From Cardiobacteriaceae bacterium (lineage in GTDB: Bacteria > Pseudomonadota > Gammaproteobacteria > Cardiobacteriales > Cardiobacteriaceae): 33,905 nucleotides of DNA. The notes under the pieces are model-generated. The model did not search any database. It was not told where the DNA came from and saw only the letters and a program-made list of their open reading frames with translations. Where the stretch lies: positions 1 to 33,905 of the forward strand of contig JAUNKJ010000004.1 of assembly GCA_030532785.1 (NCBI GenBank). The letters run 5' to 3'. Made by a program: the position numbers and the translations under genes. Every line of letters starts with the position of its first letter. The first letter of the stretch is position 1. Positions 161-33,752 of the stretch are shown here, piece after piece.

Positions 161-1060
161 ATGAACCCCTACCTCGAACTCATCCGCCCGAAAACCCTCC
201 CCCTCGCCGCCGCCGTCATCACCACCGGCAACGCCCTCGCCTGGTGGCACGCCGACGCCAGCCCCCTCATCTACCTCCTCGAACTCATCACCGCCCTCTC
301 CCTGCAAATCCTCTCCAACATCGCCAACGACTACGGCGACGGCCTGCGCGGCACCGACACCCACCGCCAAGGCCCGCGCCGCATGTACCAAAGCGGCCTC
401 ATCGGCGCACGCACCCTGCGCCTCCTCATCCTCTTCTTTGCCCTCTTCAGCCTCGCGAGCGGCATCCTCGTCATCGTCCTCTCCGAACGAAGCCCAAGCG
501 AAGGCCTCACCATCTTCGCCTTCGGCGTCCTCGCCATCCTCGCCGCCATCGGCTACACCGTCGGCCGCCACGCCTACGGCTACTACGCCCTCGGCGAAGT
601 CTCCGTCTACCTCTTCTTCGGCCTCCTCGGCGTCGTCGGCAGCTACGCCCTGCACCACATGCCCATCCCCCCCGCCATCTACCTCCCCGCAAGCGGCGCA
701 GGACTGCTTGCCGCAGGCGTCCTCCACATCAACAACCTCCGCGACCTCGACAGCGACGCCCAAGCCGGACGCAAAACCCTCGCCATCCACCTGGGCCTCG
801 CGCGCGGCAAACAACTCCACCTCATCCTCCTCGGCGCAGCACTTCTCTGCTACCTCCTCTTCGCCCTCCTCCACCTCAAAACCGCATGGGCAAGCCTCCT
901 CTGGCTCATCCTCCTCCCCGCCATCCTCGCCCACGGCAAACGCCTGCTGCACGCCAGCAACAGCGCGCAAATCGGCGGCGAACTCAAAACCCTCGTCATC
1001 CTCAACCTCGCCATCGCCCTCCTCTTCTCCGCTGGGCTCAGCATTCATAAAATCATCTAA
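161..1060 (+). CDS. menA: 1,4-dihydroxy-2-naphthoate polyprenyltransferase MenA
   Basis: Integral-membrane UbiA-family prenyltransferase that attaches a polyprenyl chain to 1,4-dihydroxy-2-naphthoate to give demethylmenaquinone in menaquinone synthesis. The 299-residue protein is close to E. coli MenA (308). It opens with LIRPKTLPLAAAV, like the MenA start, and carries both Asp-rich motifs: NIANDYGDGLRGTD near residues 52-65 (prenyl diphosphate and Mg binding) and NNLRDLDSDAQAGRKTL near 190-206. Several hydrophobic helices lie between and after them. The ATG at 161 has no evident Shine-Dalgarno sequence, but no better in-frame start was seen. Codons are overwhelmingly C-ending. The gene stands alone, followed 60 bp later by a palindromic repeat. 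It implies menaquinone is made; no other men gene is in the window. Confidence 0.93.
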   Translation: MNPYLELIRPKTLPLAAAVITTGNALAWWHADASPLIYLLELITALSLQILSNIANDYGDGLRGTDTHRQGPRRMYQSGLIGARTLRLLILFFALFSLASGILVIVLSERSPSEGLTIFAFGVLAILAAIGYTVGRHAYGYYALGEVSVYLFFGLLGVVGSYALHHMPIPPAIYLPASGAGLLAAGVLHINNLRDLDSDAQAGRKTLAIHLGLARGKQLHLILLGAALLCYLLFALLHLKTAWASLLWLILLPAILAHGKRLLHASNSAQIGGELKTLVILNLAIALLFSAGLSIHKII

Positions 1061-1061
1061 A

Positions 1062-1140
1062 ATAATCATTTTTTACCACCATAAAGCCTTATCATGCAAA
1101 AATTTCTCATGATAAGCGCTTAGACATGAGAAAATTTACC
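1062..1140. repeat. AAGCGCTT palindromic element, copy a
   Basis: Lies between menA and the yhcG remnant. The left arm ATTTTTTACCACC is followed by a decayed octamer (AAGCCTT, 1084-1090), an inner AAATTTCTCAT segment, an intact AAGCGCTT at 1114-1121, and a right arm ATGAGAAAATTTACC. The arm supplies the ATG at 1126, so the longer possible start of the next gene is probably repeat sequence. Confidence 0.75.
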
Positions 1141-2184
1141 ATGACCACACAAAACACCCCCGACACCCTCATCAACAGCATCGCCGCCATCATCGAACAG
1201 GCACGCCAACACATCCGCCACAGCGTCAACACCGCCATGGTGCAAAGTTACTGGGAAATCGGCCGCCTCATCGTCGAAGACGAACAACACGGCGAAAAAC
1301 GCGCTGCCTACGGCAAAGCGCAATTGCAAACCCTCTCCAAAGCCCTCACTGCCCGCCTCGGCAAAGGCTTCGACGTCACCAACCTGCGCAACATGCGCGC
1401 CTTCTACCTCGCCTTTCCAATTCGAGAGACAGTGTCTCCCGTTTTGAGCTGGTCACACTACAACCGCCTCACCCGCATTGAAAGCCCGGACGCCCGCCAG
1501 TGGTACATGCAAGAAGCCATCAGCCAAAACTAGAGCGTACGCGCACTCGACCGGCAAATCGGCAAACTCTACTACGAACGCCTGCTCTCCAGCCAAAACA
1601 AAGCCCTCGTCGCAAGCGAAGCCACCGCCCACACCGCCGCCCTCGAAGAAACCATCCACGACTACCTGCGCGATCCCTACATCCTCGACTTCCTCAACCT
1701 ACAAGACAAAACCTACCGCGAAAACGACCTCGAACAAGCCATCATCGACAACCTCCAGCACTTCCTCCTCGAAATGGGCAAAGGCTTCGCCTTCGTCGAA
1801 CGCCAGCAACGCATCCGCTTTGACGACGAAGACTTCTACCTCGACCTCGTCTTCTACAACTACCACCTGAAATGCTTCGTCCTGATCGACCTCAAACTCG
1901 GCAAACTCCGCCACCAGGACATCGGACAAATGGACACCTACATCCGCCTCTACGACGACACCCGCCGCAACGCCGACGACAATCCCACCATCGGCCTCCT
2001 CCTGTGCAGCGAAAAAAGCGAAACCGTCGCCCGCTACTCCATCCTCGCCGAACAAAAACAACTCTTCGCTCTCAAATACCTCCCCTACCTGCCCAGCGAA
2101 GCCGAACTGCAAACCGCACTTGCCGAACAGCGTGCCAAAGCCATCGCCCAACTCGCCCGCCAGCAAAACACCCACGAACCATAA
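1141..2184 (+). pseudogene. yhcG: YhcG/DUF1016-family PD-(D/E)XK nuclease gene with in-frame amber stop
   Basis: Read through one TAG at 1531-1533, this frame gives about 347 residues, near the size of E. coli YhcG (375). The upstream half has the DUF1016 N-terminal domain (SYWEIGRLIVEDEQHGEKRAAYG, split here as SYWEIGRLIVE and EKRAAYG; LSWSHYNRLTRIE). The downstream half has the nuclease-like core RFDDEDFYLDLVFYN followed by [11 protein letters not shown], the D...LK pattern of PD-(D/E)XK folds. The frame is otherwise open. The stop falls in QN-stop-SVRALDRQI, where relatives usually have NWSVR, so a TGG to TAG change is the simplest explanation. The ATG at 1141 was chosen; the one at 1126 lies in repeat DNA. 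Family members are poorly characterised and often linked to restriction or mobile loci. Internal starts could still give a C-terminal piece (open frame from 1774). Confidence 0.85.
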
Positions 2185-2239: not shown

Positions 2240-3832
2240 ATGACCGACATCCTCTCCAACGACTGGCGCGACCGCCGCACCTTCGCCATCATCTCCCACC
2301 CCGACGCCGGCAAAACCACCCTCACCGAAAAACTCCTCCTCTTCGGCGGTGCCATCGCCCTTGCCGGCACCGTCAAAGGCCGCAAAGCCGCGCGCCACGC
2401 CACCTCCGACTGGATGAAAATGGAACAGGAGCGCGGCATCTCCGTCACCTCCTCCGTCATGCAATTCCCCTATAACGGCAAAGTCATCAACCTGTTGGAC
2501 ACCCCCGGCCACGAAGACTTCTCCGAAGACACCTACCGCACCTTGACCGCCGTCGACTCCGCCCTCATGGTCATCGACTGCGCCAAGGGCGTCGAAGAAC
2601 GCACCATCAAACTCATGGAAGTCTGCCGCCTGCGCGACACCCCCATCTTCACTTTTATCAACAAATTAGATCGCGAAGGCCGCGACCCCATGAGCCTCCT
2701 CGACGAAGTCGAAGACATCCTGAAAATCCGCTGCGCCCCCGTCACCTGGCCCATCGGCATGGGACGCAGCCTGAAAGGCGTCTACCACCTCCTCAAAGAC
2801 ACCGTCTACTTCTACGAACCCGGCAAAGGCGCGCTCGTCAACGTCGGCGAAGAAGTGCAAGGCCTTGACAACCCGCGCCTTGACGAACTCCTCCCCGACA
2901 CCATCGACGACTTCCGCGCCGAAGTCGAACTCATCCGCGAAGCCGGCCACGCCTTTGATCACCAAGCCTATTTAAAAGGCGAACTCACCCCCGTCTACTT
3001 CGGCTCCGCCATCGGCAACTTCGGCGTGCGCGAAATGTTGAACGACTTCGCCACCTACGCCCCCGCACCGCGCGCCCGGCAAACCACCGCCCGCGAAGTC
3101 GAACCGCAAGAAACGAAATTGAGCGGCTTCGTCTTCAAAATCCAGGCCAACATGGACCCGAAACACCGCGACCGCATCGCCTTCATGCGCATCAACTCCG
3201 GCACCTTCACCCCCGGCATGAAACTGCGCCAGGTACGCATCAACCGCGACGTCAAAATCCCCGACGCCCTCACCTTCCTCGCCGCCGAACGCGAACACAT
3301 CGACACCGCCGTCGCCGGCGACATCATCGGCATCCACAACCACGGTACCATCCGCATCGGCGACACCTTCACCGAAGGCGAAGACCTCCAATTCACCGGC
3401 ATCCCCGACTTCGCCCCCGAACTCTTCCGCCGCGTGCGCTTGCAAGACCCGCTGAAAATGAAAGCGCTATTGAAAGGCCTCGAACAACTCTGCGAAGAAG
3501 GCGCCACCCAATTCTTCAAACCCCTGATCGGCAACGACCTCATCCTCGGCGCCGTCGGCGTCCTGCAATTCGACGTCGTCCAGCAACGGCTGGAAACCGA
3601 ATACAACGTCCACTGCGTCTTTGAAGGCGTCAACGTCGCCACCGCACGCTGGGTCGAAGCCCCCGACGACAAAACCCTCAAAACCTTCACCGACAAAAAC
3701 CAGCAAAACCTCGCCCACGACCACTACGGCCAACTCGTCTACGTCGCCCCCAGCCGCGTCAACCTGCAACTCACCCAGGAACGCCACCCCGACATCCGCT
3801 TCGCCGCCACCCGCGACCATTTGGCGCAATAG
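2240..3832 (+). CDS. prfC: Peptide chain release factor 3 (RF3)
   Basis: Translational GTPase that removes RF1/RF2 from the ribosome after peptide release. The 530-residue product matches the E. coli length (529). G1 is [12 protein letters not shown], the switch I region has [12 protein letters not shown]3 is DTPGHEDF and G4 is NKLDRE, followed by the RF3-specific domains 2 and 3. The start at 2240 ([20 protein letters not shown]) was chosen because homology begins there; the frame stays open upstream to 2120, but those residues are low-complexity and overlap the yhcG remnant. No Shine-Dalgarno sequence precedes the ATG. Codons are strongly C-ending, as in menA. A repeat-rich gap follows with no recognisable terminator hairpin plus U-tract. 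Confidence 0.96.
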
Positions 3833-3928: not shown

Positions 3929-4104
3929 ACCTGAGGTTCGGGATAAGAGAACAATCATTCTTGAATGATTTTTCGAAATTCTCTATGAAATGACAACCTA
4001 TTACCCTCCCCTGCTTGCGGGGGAGGGACAGGGTGGGGGTGTTGAAAACGAAGTTTTCATTCCATAGCCGTAAAAAATGCTGCGCATTTTACACCCCCAT
4101 CCTA
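3925..4104 (+). repeat. MITE-like repeat, copy A (3' truncated)
   Basis: Nearly identical over about 180 bp to the reverse complement of 5596-5769. It begins with the terminal repeat TTAACCTGAGGTTCGGGATA, continues through the GC-rich hairpin CCCTCCCCTGCTTGCGGGGG, and through GTTGAAAACGAAGTTTTCAT to TTTTACACCCCCATCCTA. The second half and the other terminus are missing; at 4105 the sequence changes to GGGCGTGTTGACAATTC. Confidence 0.8.
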
Positions 4105-4307: not shown

Positions 4308-4400
4308 ACCACCATAGCGTTTTTTTCTCATCACAAAGCGCTTATCGTGAGAAATTTTCTCATCATAAGCGCTTAACTGTGGTAAAAAATCGCTACTTTT
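4308..4400. repeat. AAGCGCTT palindromic element, copy b
   Basis: Octamers at 4336-4343 and 4367-4374, 31 bp apart, flank the inner palindrome GTGAGAAATTTTCTCAT. The right outer arm is TGGTAAAAAATCGCTACTTTT. The element lies just beyond the stop of the TfoX-domain gene on -, so in that transcript it is 3' UTR. Confidence 0.85.
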
Positions 4401-4427
4401 AATGTTTTCTTGAAAACACCCCTAACT

Positions 4428-5504: not shown

Positions 5505-5769
5505 CTCACCTGAGTTCGGAATAAGGAAAATAGATATATCCACCGATATAGCACTGTTCTCCAATCAGTTCCTTCCCCCGCTTGCGGGGGAAGGTTAGGA
5601 TGGGGGTGTAAAATGCGCAGCATTTTTTACGGCTATGGAATGAAAACTTCGTTTTCAACACCCCCACCCTGCCCCTCCCCCGCAAGCAGGGGAGGGGAAT
5701 GGTCGTCATTTCATAGAAAATTTCGAGAATTCAAGAATGATCATTCTCTTATCCCAAGATGAGGTTACC
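5505..5769 (-). repeat. MITE-like repeat, copy B (full length)
   Basis: About 265 bp, inverted relative to copy A. Both ends carry related terminal inverted repeats: ACCTGAGTTCGGAATAAGGA at 5509-5528 and, reversed, a GGATAAGAGAA...GGTTACC terminus at 5745-5769. Inside are two GC-rich hairpins, CCCCCGCTTGCGGGGG at 5575-5590 and CCTCCCCCGCAAGCAGGGGA near 5676-5695. There is no open reading frame, as expected for a non-autonomous element. Confidence 0.75.
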
Positions 5770-6035
5770 TACAAATCGCTTCGCGATACCGCATGGGCGA
5801 GGGTTCCCACGTCAAAATGCTTTGCGTTTTGCGTGGGTGCCCGGGGTTGCGCCCACCCTACGGTTCTGCGCGATTTCCCTTCTCTGCTCCGCAACTTTTC
5901 GGCTGAAACAGCTCGCGTAAGCGAGAGCCCTCAACCTCTCCTCGTGGAGAGAGGAGCTTTTTTGGTGGGTTGACACCCACCCTACCAAACGGTGGGCTGA
6001 AGCCCACCCTACGGTGATGAGGCGCAAGAGGACAA

Positions 6036-6130
6036 ATGGTAAATTTTCTCATCATGAAGCGCTTATCGTGCAAAATTTTCTCACGATAAGCGCTTAGTTA
6101 TGAGAAAAAACAACCATAAATCGTGATTTT
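6036..6130. repeat. AAGCGCTT palindromic element, copy c
   Basis: Octamers at 6057-6064 and 6088-6095 (31 bp apart) flank ATCGTGCAAAATTTTCTCACGAT. The outer arms are ATGGTAAATTTTCTCATCAT on the left and TATGAGAAAAAACAACCATA on the right. It lies 42 bp beyond the lpxC stop, at the end of the dcw transcript. Confidence 0.85.
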
Positions 6131-6172
6131 ATGAAAATTTTGCAAATCTGGGGATTTTGGGGATATGCGGCG

Positions 6173-12602: not shown

Positions 12603-12616
12603 TGTGTAAAACCTAA

Positions 12617-12702
12617 ATGGTAAAATTTCTCATTGATAAGCGCTTGGTGTGAGAAAATTTCTCGTAGTAAGCGCTTCATGATGGTAAAAAACAGCTATTT
12701 TT
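12617..12702. repeat. AAGCGCTT palindromic element, copy d (inside dcw operon)
   Basis: Octamers at 12638-12645 and 12669-12676, 31 bp apart, flank GGTGTGAGAAAATTTCTCGT. The arms are ATGGTAAAATTTCTCATTG and CATGATGGTAAAAAACAGCT. The right arm contains CTA at 12695-12697, which is the murG TAG stop, so the repeat supplies the end of murG. Confidence 0.88.
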
Positions 12703-13795
12703 CGCTGTTTTTTGCAATAACGTTATAGACGGCATCCATGATGCGCTCAAGCGCTTCGCCGTGCGACACCGCGCGCGCCGCTTCGGCTTTTTTGCGCAGC
12801 GCCGTGCGATCGGCGTGCGCGGCAATCTGTCCGGCGAGAATATCTGCCGTCAAATCCGCCTGCTGCACCACCTGCGCCGCCCCGGCATCAACCAGGGTCT
12901 GCGCGTTCGCGGTTTGATGATCATCGACAGCATGAGGAAACGGCACGAAAAGCGCGGGCAAGCCCACCGTGGCAATCTCCGCCACCGTCAGCGCCCCGGA
13001 ACGGGCAATCACCCAGTCGGCATCGGCATAGGCGCTCGCCATGTCTTCCATGAACGGCACGACTTGCGCCTCCACGCCGCTCGCCACATAAGCGCTTTGC
13101 GCCTCCGGCAAACCGCGCTCGCCCGCCTGATGCAGTACCTCGGGGCGCGCCGCTTCCGGCAGCAATGCCAGCGCTTGCGGCAGCAAAGTATTGAGCGCCT
13201 TTGCACCCTGTGAACCGCCGAGTACCAGCAAACGGATTTTCCCTGCGCGCGCGGCATAACGCACGGCAGGCGCAGGCACATCGGCAAAGGCGGCGCGCAC
13301 CGGATTGCCGACCGCCTCGCCCCTGCCGCGCAAACGCGCCGACGCACGGGCATCGCCCAAAAGCACCACATCGGCGACACGCGCGAGCAAACGGTTGGTC
13401 AGCCCCGCCACCGCATTCTGTTCGTGAATGATGAGCGGCACGCCCGCCATTTTCGCCGCCACCCCGCCAGGGCCAGCGGCAAAGCCGCCCATGCCGATGA
13501 CCGCATCGGGGCGAATGTCCTTGATGACGCGGCGCGCGGCGCGGATGGCACGGGTAAGCATGATGGGCGCTTGCAGCCAGCCAATGAGGCCGTTGCCGCG
13601 CAAACCGCGCACCGCAATATCATGAAAGGCAAAGCCGTATGCCGGCACCTTGCGCCCTTCAAACCCCTGCGCGTTGCCGAGCCAATGCACGCTCGCGCCC
13701 GCTTCGCGCGCCGCCTGTGCCACCGCGAGCGCGGGGTAGACGTGGCCGCCGGTGCCGCCCGCCATCATCAGCAGCGTTTTCCCGGCGAGGTTCAC
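12695..13795 (-). CDS. murG: UDP-GlcNAc:undecaprenyl-PP-MurNAc-pentapeptide GlcNAc transferase MurG
   Basis: Membrane-associated GT-B glycosyltransferase that converts lipid I to lipid II. The 366 residues (E. coli 355) have MMAGGTGGHVYPALAVA near the N terminus, LVLGGSQGAKALN in the linker region, and the donor-binding run ARSGALTVAEIATVGLPALF followed by PFPHAVDDHQTANA. The start is GTG at 13795, in a GTGA overlap with the ftsW stop. The last codons (AAC AGC GAA AAA TAG) lie in or beside the arm of palindromic element d, so the C-terminal tail may have been altered by insertion of that repeat. Confidence 0.95.
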   Translation of the reverse strand: MNLAGKTLLMMAGGTGGHVYPALAVAQAAREAGASVHWLGNAQGFEGRKVPAYGFAFHDIAVRGLRGNGLIGWLQAPIMLTRAIRAARRVIKDIRPDAVIGMGGFAAGPGGVAAKMAGVPLIIHEQNAVAGLTNRLLARVADVVLLGDARASARLRGRGEAVGNPVRAAFADVPAPAVRYAARAGKIRLLVLGGSQGAKALNTLLPQALALLPEAARPEVLHQAGERGLPEAQSAYVASGVEAQVVPFMEDMASAYADADWVIARSGALTVAEIATVGLPALFVPFPHAVDDHQTANAQTLVDAGAAQVVQQADLTADILAGQIAAHADRTALRKKAEAARAVSHGEALERIMDAVYNVIAKNSEK

Positions 13796-17518: not shown

Positions 17519-17630
17519 TGGGAAAATTTCCCACCCAAAAGCGCTTATATCGTTATTTTTTACCACACATAAGCGCTTATGATGAGAAATTTTCTCACAA
17601 CAAGCGCTTTCCCATGAGAAATTTTCCCAT
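17519..17630. repeat. AAGCGCTT palindromic element, copy e (inside dcw operon, three octamers)
   Basis: The longest copy: octamers at 17539-17546, 17571-17578 and 17602-17609, spaced 32 and 31 bp. The connectors are ATATCGTTATTTTTTACCAC and ATGATGAGAAATTTTCTCAC, one of each connector type. It ends directly at the murF stop (TGA, 17632-17634). Confidence 0.9.
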
Positions 17631-17631
17631 T

Positions 17632-18963
17632 TCATGTTTTCAACCCCGCCGCGTGCAGCACGTTTTCCATCGCCGCGCTGCGCGAGCCTTTCACCAGCAC
17701 TTGCCCGCCCTGATGTGCCGCGAGCCATTCGCGCAAGGCACTGCCCGCGCTTTGCGCATCGGCAAAGCTGCGCAGGCCGGGGAAACCTGCAGCGTAATCG
17801 TCGGCATGTTCGCCCACCGCCCAGAATTCGCCGACGCCCTGTTCGCGGGCGAAGGCGGCGACTTCCGTATGCAGCGCGGCGCTGTCCGCGCCCAGTTCCG
17901 CCATTTTCCCGGCGATGACCAGCGCCGGTTGGCGCAACACGGCGATGCCCGCCTTGAAGGAGGCGGGATTGGCGTTGTAGGTGTCGTCGTAGACGGTGTG
18001 GCTGCCGACGGCGAGCGCGGTCAAGCGGCTGTTGGCAACGTTGAAGCCGTCGAGCGCGGCGCACACGGTGGCGAAGTCGATGCCGCCCAAAAGCGCGCTG
18101 GCGCAGGCGGCAAGCGCATTCATCACGTTGTGCGCGCCGACGAGCTGCCAGGCAATCTCCGCGCTTTGCCCCTGCACGGTGAGGCGGAAGCGCTTGGCGT
18201 CGAGCATTGCCGCGTGGCAGTCGGCGTTGTCGTTCTGCATGGAGAAGGTGAGGCGCTTGCGCCCGGAGGTCAGCGCGAGCCACGCGTCCGATGCCGGGGT
18301 GTCGAGGTTGACGGCGACCGCCCCCTCGCTTGCCGCGTAGATTTCTGTTTTCGCGCTGATGACCCCGGCAAAATCGCCGAAGCCTTCAAGATGGGCGGGC
18401 GCGACGTTGGTGATCACCGCCACATCCGGCAACGCGAGTTTGGCGAGGTAATCGATTTCGCCAAGATGGTTGGCGCCCATTTCGATCACGGCGTAGCGGT
18501 GCGCATCGCGCAGGCGCAGCAGGGTCAGCGGCACGCCGATGTCGTTGTTCAAATTGCCTTGCGTATAAAGGGTTTCCCCTGCGCGGGCGAGGATGGCGGC
18601 CAAGATTTCCTTGGTGGTGGTCTTGCCGTTGCTGCCGGTCATGGCAAAGACGGTGGCGCGGCTTTGCCTGCGCCGCCATCTGGCGATTTGCCCCAGCGCC
18701 ACGCGGGTGTCCGCAACGACAATCTGCGGCAAGGCGCTCGCGCTTTTTTCCGACACCACGGCGGCAACCGCCCCCGCCGCTTCCGCCTGCGCCAGAAAAT
18801 CCGCGCCGCGAAAATGCTCGCCATCGAGCGCAACAAACAAATCGCCCGCTTTCAGGCTGCGGGTGTCGGTGCTGACGTCCCACGCGGTGAAATCCGCGCC
18901 GCTGCGCGTGCCACCGGTGGCATCCACAATATCCCTTGCGGTAAAAGCGCTTATCCCAGCCAT
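17632..18963 (-). CDS. murF: UDP-MurNAc-tripeptide--D-alanyl-D-alanine ligase MurF
   Basis: Adds D-Ala-D-Ala to complete the pentapeptide stem. The 443 residues (E. coli 452) show the MurF N-terminal domain (DVSTDTRSLKAGDLFVALDG), the P-loop FAMTGSNGKTTTKEILAAIL, EMGANHLGEI, and DDTYNANPASFKAGI. The ATG at 18963 overlaps the murE stop by 13 bp. An AAGCGCTT octamer at about 18944 lies inside the early coding sequence and is unpaired. The gene ends at palindromic element e, followed by the 70-bp inverted repeat, before mraY. Confidence 0.95.
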   Translation of the reverse strand: MAGISAFTARDIVDATGGTRSGADFTAWDVSTDTRSLKAGDLFVALDGEHFRGADFLAQAEAAGAVAAVVSEKSASALPQIVVADTRVALGQIARWRRRQSRATVFAMTGSNGKTTTKEILAAILARAGETLYTQGNLNNDIGVPLTLLRLRDAHRYAVIEMGANHLGEIDYLAKLALPDVAVITNVAPAHLEGFGDFAGVISAKTEIYAASEGAVAVNLDTPASDAWLALTSGRKRLTFSMQNDNADCHAAMLDAKRFRLTVQGQSAEIAWQLVGAHNVMNALAACASALLGGIDFATVCAALDGFNVANSRLTALAVGSHTVYDDTYNANPASFKAGIAVLRQPALVIAGKMAELGADSAALHTEVAAFAREQGVGEFWAVGEHADDYAAGFPGLRSFADAQSAGSALREWLAAHQGGQVLVKGSRSAAMENVLHAAGLKT

Positions 18964-24742: not shown

Positions 24743-24780
24743 CATACCTCCCTGATTTTCAATCATTTCACAAAAAGACG

Positions 24781-24872
24781 AAAAATAGTGATTTTTTACC
24801 ACCATTAAGCGCTTAACGTGCAATTTTTTCTCACAAAAATCACTTCATGATGGTAAAAAACCGCTATTTTTT
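24781..24872. repeat. AAGCGCTT palindromic element, copy f (nearly full length)
   Basis: The most complete copy. Outer arms AAAAATAGTGATTTTTTACC and GGTAAAAAACCGCTATTTTT are inverted. The left octamer at 24807-24814 is intact; the right one at 24838-24845 has decayed to AATCACTT but keeps the 31-bp spacing. It is just upstream of the serine hydrolase. Confidence 0.88.
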
Positions 24873-25003
24873 CCGTTTAATCTCAGTATACGACAAAACT
24901 CTTCTTTTGATTGAAAGCACGGTTCAAAAGCCCCTCCCCCTGTGGGACGACTGGCTTGCCAGCTCGTCCGAAAAACGAGAAAAGTTGGGAAGAGGGCAGC
25001 AAA

Positions 25004-26928: not shown

Positions 26929-27654
26929 GGGATTGCCTTGCTGTTTGGACGATACGGCGACGCCGCCGAAAGCGCGGTATTGTGCCTCATGGCCGGGGTT
27001 TTTGCACGATTTTGTTGCGGCAATGGTAAAAAATCACTATCTAAAGCGCTTATATGGTTATTTTTTACCGAGTTAAGCGCTTCATGATGGTAAAAAACAG
27101 CTATTTTTGATGGTTTTTTGGATTTTTATATGAATGAATCCAGACAGCTTATTAATGAAATGCCGATTGTAGCTACGGTTAGGCGCAAAGCGCCGTAACC
27201 GTACATTCTTCAAAGCGTTTTGTACGGTTACGCGCCGTTGGTGCTAACGGTATCTACATCAAGGTGGGTTGACACCCACCCTACGGCCTATCCATGAAAT
27301 GCGGTACGTCATTCGTAGGTCGGCCATTTATGGCCGACATTAAACCCCTCTCCCCAACCCCTCCCCCGTGGGGGGAGGGGCTTTAGTCCATTGCTTTGTT
27401 TGAAATTCATCGTATAAGAACGTCCTACGCTGGTGGACTAAAGTCCACCCTACGGCTTTGCACGAATTTGGTAGGCTGGGTTAGGCGTTAGCCGTAACCC
27501 AGCGCAAGATTGGGGTTTGTTGCCGAATTACGCGGCAATGTCGCTAACTCAGCCTACAAGCGCTGCCCGTTGGGGTTCGCTTCGCTCACCACCAACCTAC
27601 TTACCGCATGGGCTTACGCCCATCCTTACGCTACTAAAGCCCCCCCATGGTTCA
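26929..27654. other. Gene-free palindrome-dense gap between dnaE and glnA
   Basis: About 725 bp with no credible gene. After AAGCGCTT element g (27023-27108) come at least six different short palindromes: GGCGCAAAGCGCC and GTACGGTTACGCGCC units (27180-27245), GGTGGGTTGACACCCACC (27263-27280), GTCGGCCATTTATGGCCGAC (27318-27337), a CCCCTCCCCC/GGGGGAGGGG hairpin (27358-27380), GTGGACTAAAGTCCAC (27433-27448), GGCTGGGTTA...AACCCAGC (27473-27502), and GCATGGGCTTACGCCCATCC (27607-27626). The glnA promoter must lie within 26929-27022 or inside element g. Confidence 0.8.
27023..27108. repeat. AAGCGCTT palindromic element, copy g
   Basis: Octamers at 27044-27051 and 27075-27082, 31 bp apart, around ATATGGTTATTTTTTACCGA. 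The outer arms are ATGGTAAAAAATCACTAT and GATGGTAAAAAACAGCTATT. It lies upstream of glnA. Confidence 0.88.
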
Positions 27655-31188: not shown

Positions 31189-31262
31189 GGGAAAAATCAC
31201 GGCAAAAGAAAGCCGCGTAGCTTACCCGATTCGTTATCCAGCGCCAATATGGTGCTGTTGAT

Positions 31263-31348
31263 CGTGAGAAATCTTCTCATCAAGAAGCGCTTATGATGAT
31301 AAATTTTCTCATCATAAGCGCTTCATCGTGGTAAAAAACTACTATTTT
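31263..31348. repeat. AAGCGCTT palindromic element, copy h (dnaE-hemB intergenic)
   Basis: Octamers at 31285-31292 and 31316-31323, 31 bp apart, around ATGATGATAAATTTTCTCATCAT. The left arm is CGTGAGAAATCTTCTCATCA; the right arm is CATCGTGGTAAAAAACTACT. It fills the centre of the 222-bp divergent promoter region, so it is 5' to both genes. Confidence 0.88.
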
Positions 31349-31362
31349 CAAGCAAAATATGA

Positions 31363-32415
<1,053 letters not shown>

Positions 32416-32422
32416 AAACGCC

Positions 32423-32480
32423 CAAAATAACCGTTTTTTACCATCGTGAAGCGCTTGTCGCGGTAAAAAACCCCTATTTT
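32423..32480. repeat. AAGCGCTT palindromic element, copy i (single octamer)
   Basis: Minimal copy: one octamer at 32449-32456 between inverted arms AAAATAACCGTTTTTTACCA and CGGTAAAAAACCCCTATTTT. It lacks the second octamer and the inner GAGAAATTTTCTC segment, and shows the outer arms can pair around a single octamer. Lies between hemB and the M20 gene. Confidence 0.85.
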
Positions 32481-32502: not shown

Positions 32503-33666
32503 ATGACACCGGCGATCACCGCCCATGACCCCATCGACACCCTGATGCGCGCGTGGCGGCACGACTTTCACCAGCACCCGGAAACCGCCTTCGAAGAAAC
32601 GCGCACCTCGGCCAAGGTCGCGGAACTGTTGCAATCCTTCGCGCTTGACGAAGTGCACACCGGCCTCGCGGTTACGGGCGTCGTCGGCGTCCTCCACGGC
32701 GAAAAGCCCGGGCCGCGCATCGCTCTGCGCGCCGACATGGACGCCCTCGACATCCATGAAACCAACACCTTCGCCCACCGCTCCACCACACCTGGCAAAA
32801 TGCACGCCTGCGGCCACGACGGCCACACCAGCATGCTCCTCGGTGCCGCCAAATACCTGAGCGAACACCGCGACTTCCCCGGCACCGCCATCTTCATCTT
32901 CCAGCCCGCCGAAGAAAACGAAGTTGGCGGACGGCGCATGTGCGACGAAGGATTATTCGAACAATTTCCGGCAGATGCCGTCTACGGCCTGCACAACTGG
33001 CCGGAACTGCCCGCTGGCACCGCCGCCGTACACGACCGCGAAGTCATGGCCTCCTTCGACATCTTCGACATCGACATCCACGGCAAAGGCTGCCACGGCG
33101 CCATGCCCCACCTCGGTATCGACGCCGTCGCCATCGCCGCGCAAATCGTCAGCGCCCTGCAACTCATCGTCAGCCGCAACGTCGACAGCGCCGAACGCGC
33201 CGTCGTCAGCGTCACCCAAATCCACGGCGGCGACATGTACAACATCCTCCCCGCCAGCGTGCGCCTCTCCGGCGGCACCCGCGCCCTCGACCCCGCCGTG
33301 CGCGACCTGCTGGAAACCCGCATCCGCGAAACCGCAAGCGGCATCGCGGAAGCCCTCGGCGCAAGCGCCAGCGTCCATTACCAACGCCGCTACCCGCCCA
33401 CCATCAACCACCCCGCGCAGGCCGAAACCATCCACCGCGCCGCCTGCGCGCTCCTTGGCAACGACAACGTACAGCGCAACCCGCCGCCGAGCATGGCCGC
33501 AGAAGACTTCGCCGTCATGCTCGAACGCCGCCCCGGTGCCTACATCTGGCTCGGCAACGGCAAACCGCACCCCGGCGCGGTACTGCACAGCCCCGGCTAC
33601 GACTTCAACGACGACATCCTCGCCCTCGGTGCCAGCCTGTGGGTAGCATTGATCCAACAGGGATGA
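32503..33666 (+). CDS. M20-family amidohydrolase (hippurate hydrolase-like)
   Basis: Zinc-dependent amidohydrolase of the M20D group (hippurate hydrolase, N-acyl-amino-acid hydrolases, IAA-amino-acid hydrolase relatives), 387 residues. Metal-binding residues are visible: C103 and H105 in MHACGHDGHTSML, E137-E138 in FQPAEENE, H164 in YGLHNWPELP, and a late His in VLHSPGYDFNDD; SMAAEDFAVML is the conserved C-terminal motif. The dimerisation or lid domain lies between about residues 185 and 300. The physiological substrate cannot be told from sequence. The ATG at 32503 has GGAG 7 nt upstream. It is co-directional with hemB across element i. Codons are C-ending. Confidence 0.9.
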   Translation: MTPAITAHDPIDTLMRAWRHDFHQHPETAFEETRTSAKVAELLQSFALDEVHTGLAVTGVVGVLHGEKPGPRIALRADMDALDIHETNTFAHRSTTPGKMHACGHDGHTSMLLGAAKYLSEHRDFPGTAIFIFQPAEENEVGGRRMCDEGLFEQFPADAVYGLHNWPELPAGTAAVHDREVMASFDIFDIDIHGKGCHGAMPHLGIDAVAIAAQIVSALQLIVSRNVDSAERAVVSVTQIHGGDMYNILPASVRLSGGTRALDPAVRDLLETRIRETASGIAEALGASASVHYQRRYPPTINHPAQAETIHRAACALLGNDNVQRNPPPSMAAEDFAVMLERRPGAYIWLGNGKPHPGAVLHSPGYDFNDDILALGASLWVALIQQG

Positions 33667-33752
33667 TAAAAAATCATCATACAAAGCGCTTTATATGGTT
33701 GTTTTTTACCATCATGAAGCGCTTATCGCGATAAAAAATGACGATTTTTATT
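33667..33752. repeat. AAGCGCTT palindromic element, copy j
   Basis: Octamers at 33684-33691 and 33717-33724, 33 bp apart (the widest spacing seen), around TATATGGTTGTTTTTTACCA. The outer arms are ATAAAAAATCATCATAC and CGATAAAAAATGACGATTTT. It follows the M20 gene stop directly. Confidence 0.85.

What the first reader, a model, noticed from the sequence alone, without database searches (positions are those of the whole stretch)
1531..1533. Single amber codon at a conserved Trp in a YhcG-family nuclease
The frame from 1141 to 2184 is intact and conserved on both sides of the TAG, and the stop replaces the Trp expected in the NWSVR motif. One base change (TGG to TAG) explains it. Either this is a very recent inactivation, a sequencing error, or the gene is read by suppression. 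The missing 3' decay argues for recent loss or continued use.
Basis: partly seen in the sequence, partly recalled or inferred. Interest (0 to 1): 0.55.

Follow-up and report, generated by a model that had tools for sequence, protein, structure and literature searches.

The report
Nuclease gene broken by one stop
A bacterial nuclease gene carries a single stop codon where its relatives have tryptophan; it looks like an ordinary recent gene loss, or a one-base error in a draft assembly, and nothing suggests that the cell reads through it.

Summary
In detail: window 1141-2184 reads as a full-length YhcG/DUF1016 PD-(D/E)XK nuclease gene with one in-frame TAG at 1531-1533. That codon is TGG (Trp) in 93 of 93 related loci covering it. 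The rest of the frame shows no decay. The next gene, prfC, itself ends in TAG where its same-genus orthologue ends in TGA; release factor 1 is encoded; no CUA tRNA or pylS was found. So TAG is a stop here and recoding is unlikely, though the tRNA list is incomplete (draft genome, 78% complete). Broken yhcG copies are common: 5 of 80 fetched relatives have a stop in the body or a frameshift; another copy in this genome has lost its catalytic core by an in-frame deletion; three copies in related genomes are in pieces. Best account: a recent nonsense mutation in an accessory, perhaps defence-related gene. A one-base assembly or mixed-strain error cannot be excluded without reads. Interest is low. 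More striking, in passing: a ~100-bp palindromic intergenic repeat with about 450 copies in each of two same-genus genomes, one copy ending at this gene's start codon.

The parts
1531..1533 (+). in-frame TAG at codon 131, where relatives have Trp
1141..1530 (+). 5' part of the yhcG frame (DUF1016_N domain); an ATG at 1126 is an alternative start
1534..2184 (+). 3' part of the yhcG frame (YhcG PD-(D/E)XK nuclease domain), open and conserved but behind the stop; first in-frame ATG at 1774
1044..1142 (+). copy of the dispersed palindromic repeat; its right end meets the ATG at 1141; its first AAGCGCTT core is decayed to AAAGCCTT
161..1060 (+). upstream neighbour, UbiA-family prenyltransferase gene
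2240..3832 (+). downstream neighbour prfC (RF3), intact, itself ending in TAG

Best explanation
The window carries a recently inactivated copy of a widely spread yhcG gene (DUF1016 helical domain plus YhcG PD-(D/E)XK nuclease). One base change turned the invariant Trp codon 131 into TAG. Translation should end after the DUF1016_N domain, giving a fragment of 130-135 residues without the nuclease. The first in-frame restart codon (ATG 1774, residue 212) lies inside the nuclease domain, so a restarted product would lack the start of that domain. Shown: the stop, the intact flanks, the conserved Trp, TAG serving as stop in the neighbouring prfC, RF1 encoded, and other broken yhcG copies in this and related genomes. 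Inferred: that the mutation is real in the organism, that it abolishes function, and that loss is tolerated because the gene is accessory (two other copies without internal stops in this genome, none in the same-genus genome).
For: Single lesion in a full-length frame. TGG at the position in 93 of 93 covering loci. Conserved columns at the 95% level: 0 mismatches of 29 before and 1 of 72 after the stop, so little time without selection. TAG is a real stop here: prfC ends in TAG at the orthologous position, prfA/RF1 is present over its family cut-off. The contig looks accurate: 19 orthologous genes, about 7,150 aligned codons against the same-genus genome, show no internal stop or frameshift (of 20 rows I leave out 1 antisense ORF, and 2 rows hold a stop only upstream of the G000 start codon). 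Accessory nature: no match in same-genus G001 and in 35 of the 40 genomes of the call's tally; best matches in Halomonas, Pasteurellaceae, Neisseria and others. Loss is common: of 80 fetched relatives 74 are clean, 4 have a stop in the body (L021 TAG, L024 TAA, L088 TGA, L096 TGA), 1 only a terminal stop (L061), 1 is frameshift-like (L045). The C93 copy of this genome has an in-frame deletion of about 45 residues over the catalytic Asp region. G002:C27, G008:C15 and G035:C24 hold copies in pieces (frames of the first two).
Against: No reads and no second strain: a one-base assembly or consensus error at the site would look the same. Absence of further decay is also what continued use would give. 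The census of broken relatives is biased by how the loci were fetched (the best 80 of 555 confirmed).
Confidence: 0.72

Rival explanations
1. The TAG is a one-base error of the assembly, or a minority or mixed-strain allele fixed in the consensus of a draft genome; the living population has an intact gene.
For: The genome is a draft of 206 contigs, 78% complete, and the site lies 1.5 kb from the end of its contig. The rest of the gene shows no decay.
Against: About 7,150 codons of 19 orthologous genes on the same contig show no internal stop or frameshift, so a high error rate is excluded, though not a single error. Many of those genes are essential, which would also remove real mutations.
Confidence: 0.2
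2. The stop is kept because the 130-135 residue DUF1016_N fragment has a use of its own, for example as a partner or inhibitor of the intact paralogues.
For: The fragment is a nearly whole domain (profile positions 2-120 of 137), and two other yhcG copies in the genome have no internal stop.
Against: The part behind the stop is as well conserved as the part before it, which a selected truncation would not maintain. The fragment lacks the end of its domain.
Confidence: 0.05
3. The gene is still read in full, by a suppressor tRNA, leaky termination or transcript editing of UAG to UGG.
For: No decay behind the stop. The tRNA list of the draft genome is incomplete: 21 matches against 39 in the same-genus genome.
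Against: prfC ends in TAG, RF1 is encoded, no CUA anticodon was seen, no pylS in G000, no structure around the stop (z-score +1.75). Other broken relatives use all three stop codons.
Confidence: 0.03

Closest known systems
YhcG family, COG4804/PF06250 with DUF1016_N (PF17761); PADLOC candidate defence family PDC-S02
   Same: Both domains complete when the stop is read as Trp; PDC-S02 models match up to E 2.6e-144; D235 and K252 invariant and D250 nearly so in the alignment, in line with the E-D-E(I/L/V)K motif given for YhcG in PMC1189080 (passages seen).
   Different: The nuclease domain lies behind an in-frame TAG.
Single-nonsense pseudogenes of the same family (L021, L024, L096)
   Same: One in-frame stop in an otherwise open and conserved frame.
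   Different: Other positions (aligned residues 20 and 147) and other stop codons in two of the three.
Amber recoding (suppression, pyrrolysine, reassigned TAG)
   Same: An in-frame TAG with a conserved frame behind it.
   Different: None of the machinery or of the expected sense use of TAG was found.

Membership tests
YhcG / DUF1016 nuclease family | DUF1016_N followed by YhcG_C in one frame | tested here: met
   with the TAG read as Trp; each half also scores alone.
YhcG / DUF1016 nuclease family | PD-(D/E)XK residues kept | tested here: met
   D235 and K252 invariant, D250 nearly invariant and present in the window frame.
YhcG / DUF1016 nuclease family | nuclease activity | not testable with these tools
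   No assay; the activity of the family is a prediction in PMC1189080.
Nonsense pseudogene | in-frame stop that removes a conserved functional domain | tested here: met
Nonsense pseudogene | mutation present in the organism's DNA, not an assembly error | not testable with these tools
   No reads and no second strain; contig quality is good.
Amber recoding | TAG used as a sense codon in other genes | tested here: not met
   No internal TAG in 19 orthologous genes of the contig, and prfC ends in TAG at the orthologous position.
Amber recoding | tRNA with a CUA anticodon, or pylS | tested here: inconclusive
   None found in G000 or in 22 scanned G001 loci, but the G000 assembly is 78% complete.
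PDC-S02 defence candidate | anti-phage activity | not testable with these tools
   Only the profile match.

The most novel reading that the evidence does not exclude
The gene is still expressed as a full-length nuclease through leaky reading of this single TAG (a suppressor tRNA in the unassembled part of the genome, or editing of UAG to UGG in the transcript), which would keep a potentially self-harming nuclease at a low dose.
Probability: 0.03. Interest if true: 0.65.

Novelty: new member of a known kind. Interest (0 to 1): 0.12.

Why it matters
As it stands it matters little: one more young loss in a nuclease family that is gained and lost often, and a warning that the 135-residue ORF is not a separate gene. 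If read-through were shown, it would be a case of dosage control of a nuclease through a stop codon.

Tried and rejected
Tested and set aside: code reassignment (prfC ends in TAG; RF1); pyrrolysine (no match in G000, two hits of 21.8 bits in G001 far below the cut-off of 178.15); suppressor tRNA (none, list incomplete); a structured recoding signal (none); the same site with A or G in viral contigs (0 matches); a solved relative (none). A structure model from 38 sequences was only moderate (mean pLDDT 66.1, pTM 0.39); in it residue 131 lies in a turn before a helix and the beta strands of the nuclease come after the stop, but I put no weight on it and ran no fold search. That prfC lies next door does not explain read-through: it is intact.

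Literature: PMC1189080 (passages on YhcG seen), PMC11341870 (one passage, a figure legend), PMC8040213 (passages), PMC3733652 (three terms looked for, no occurrence). Of the searches I saw the listings. No search was made for this allele in print.

Results against my reading: no decay behind the stop, and no reads or second strain, so an assembly error cannot be excluded.

Full report
What is there. The frame 1141-2184 translates to 347 residues with one stop, TAG at 1531-1533, and ends in TAA. Pfam places DUF1016_N before the stop and the YhcG PD-(D/E)XK domain after it. Models of PADLOC's candidate defence family PDC-S02 match over residues 4-339. The window is one contig of a draft genome of 2.07 Mb in 206 contigs, 78% complete. 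The gene sits between a UbiA-family gene and prfC. The only same-genus genome held (G001) has no yhcG match, and there the ubiA and prfC counterparts lie about 10 kb apart in the other order. So yhcG is accessory here.

Is the stop out of place? Yes. Trp131 is invariant in the 38-row alignment, whose first row is the window read as Trp.

Is the rest decayed? No. With 83 near-full-length relatives of 95, the window frame agrees at 29 of 29 columns conserved at 95% or more before the stop and at 71 of 72 after it; relatives have a median of 1 mismatch after the stop, range 0 to 14. Third-position G+C is 0.75 before and 0.76 after the stop, within the 0.73-0.87 of 11 other genes of the window.

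Is TAG read as sense in this organism? The evidence says no. prfC, the next gene, ends in TAG at 3830-3832, where the G001 orthologue (96.6% over 529 of 529 residues) ends in TGA. RF1 is encoded over its cut-off. ARAGORN read the anticodons in the loci round the 21 tRNA matches of G000, and none is CUA. G001 has 39 matches; loci exist for the best 30, of which I scanned 22, and again none is CUA. G000 has no pylS match. The RNA around the stop folds less well than its shuffles, and Rfam has nothing in 900-2300. The gap: the tRNA list of G000 is about half that of G001.

Is the contig trustworthy? Of 20 matches between G001 ORFs and the window, I take one as an antisense ORF; the other 19, about 7,150 codons, show no frameshift, and the only two stops in the alignments lie upstream of the G000 start codons. 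This excludes a high error rate but not a single error.

Is a broken yhcG unusual? No. Of the 80 genome-contig relatives, 74 are clean; L021 (TAG), L024 (TAA), L088 (TGA) and L096 (TGA) carry stops in the body, L061 only a terminal one, and L045 is frameshift-like. In this genome the C93 copy lacks about 45 residues after aligned position 202, including the catalytic Asp region, in an open frame; the C7 and C193 copies have no stop inside. G002:C27 and G008:C15 hold copies split over two and three frames, and G035:C24 one in two pieces. All three stop codons occur, with no preference for amber.

How it works. Translation should yield a DUF1016_N fragment of 130-135 residues. The first in-frame ATG, GTG or TTG after the stop is ATG 1774 (residue 212), inside the nuclease domain, which starts near residue 174. 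So no separate nuclease can be made from its own beginning, and I infer loss of function. PMC1189080 (passages) predicts DNA cleavage for YhcG and reports no known function.

Conclusion. Recent nonsense mutation in an accessory nuclease gene 0.72; single-base error or mixed-strain consensus 0.20; useful fragment 0.05; read-through 0.03.

Seen on the way. Directly upstream, at 1044-1142, lies one copy of a dispersed repeat. The oriented consensus of 64 distinct copies with a 39-bp core, taken from the loci at hand, holds two AAGCGCTT palindromes 31 bp apart, joined by a GTGAGAAA-TTTCTCAC palindrome, with a T-rich left arm and a right arm GAGAAAATTT followed by a variable CCAT. The paired core occurs 446 times in G000, 461 in G001 and 29 in G003, once in G005 and not in the other eight of 12 family genomes; the pattern read backwards gives 0 in all 12. 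The window's own copy upstream of yhcG has a decayed first core and is not among the 446. Four sites of the window (near 6057, 12638, 17539 and 24807) have a paired-core element at the matching place in G001, and the site after ubiA has a single core there, so these sites are old. G000 has one REP-transposase-like gene (Y1_Tnp, 30 bits) with two near-identical copies of the repeat within 300 bases upstream, though at this density nearness alone proves little. It resembles a REP/REPIN family; this was not tested further. The three searches on it showed no description in their listings.

Noticed in passing
window 1044-1142, 4313-4415, 6034-6136, 12615-12717, 17519-17632, 24765-24886, 27021-27123, 31262-31364, 32409-32480, 33665-33748: A ~100-bp palindromic intergenic repeat with AAGCGCTT cores 31 bp apart: 446 exact paired cores in this draft genome, 461 in the same-genus genome, 29 in one other genus of the family, 0-1 in the other nine of 12 genomes, 0 for the reversed control. 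Four sites are shared with the same-genus genome. Probably REP/REPIN-like; function unknown.
   Followed up: partly
L183 1366-2025 (G000:C53): The one REP-transposase-like gene (Y1_Tnp, PF01797) found in the genome, with two near-identical copies of the repeat within 300 bases upstream: a candidate mobiliser of the repeat.
   Followed up: partly
L173 1759-2652 (G000:C93): A second damaged yhcG copy in the same genome: an in-frame deletion of about 45 residues removes the catalytic Asp region while the frame stays open.
   Followed up: yes
L021 3064 and L024 3037: Two relatives (a Halomonas and an Actinobacillus record) carry a nonsense codon at the same aligned residue 20, as TAG and TAA; a start further downstream is possible.
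   Followed up: no
window 4000-4104 and 5596-5700: A 105-base inverted repeat, 98% complementary, 1.5 kb apart.
   Followed up: no
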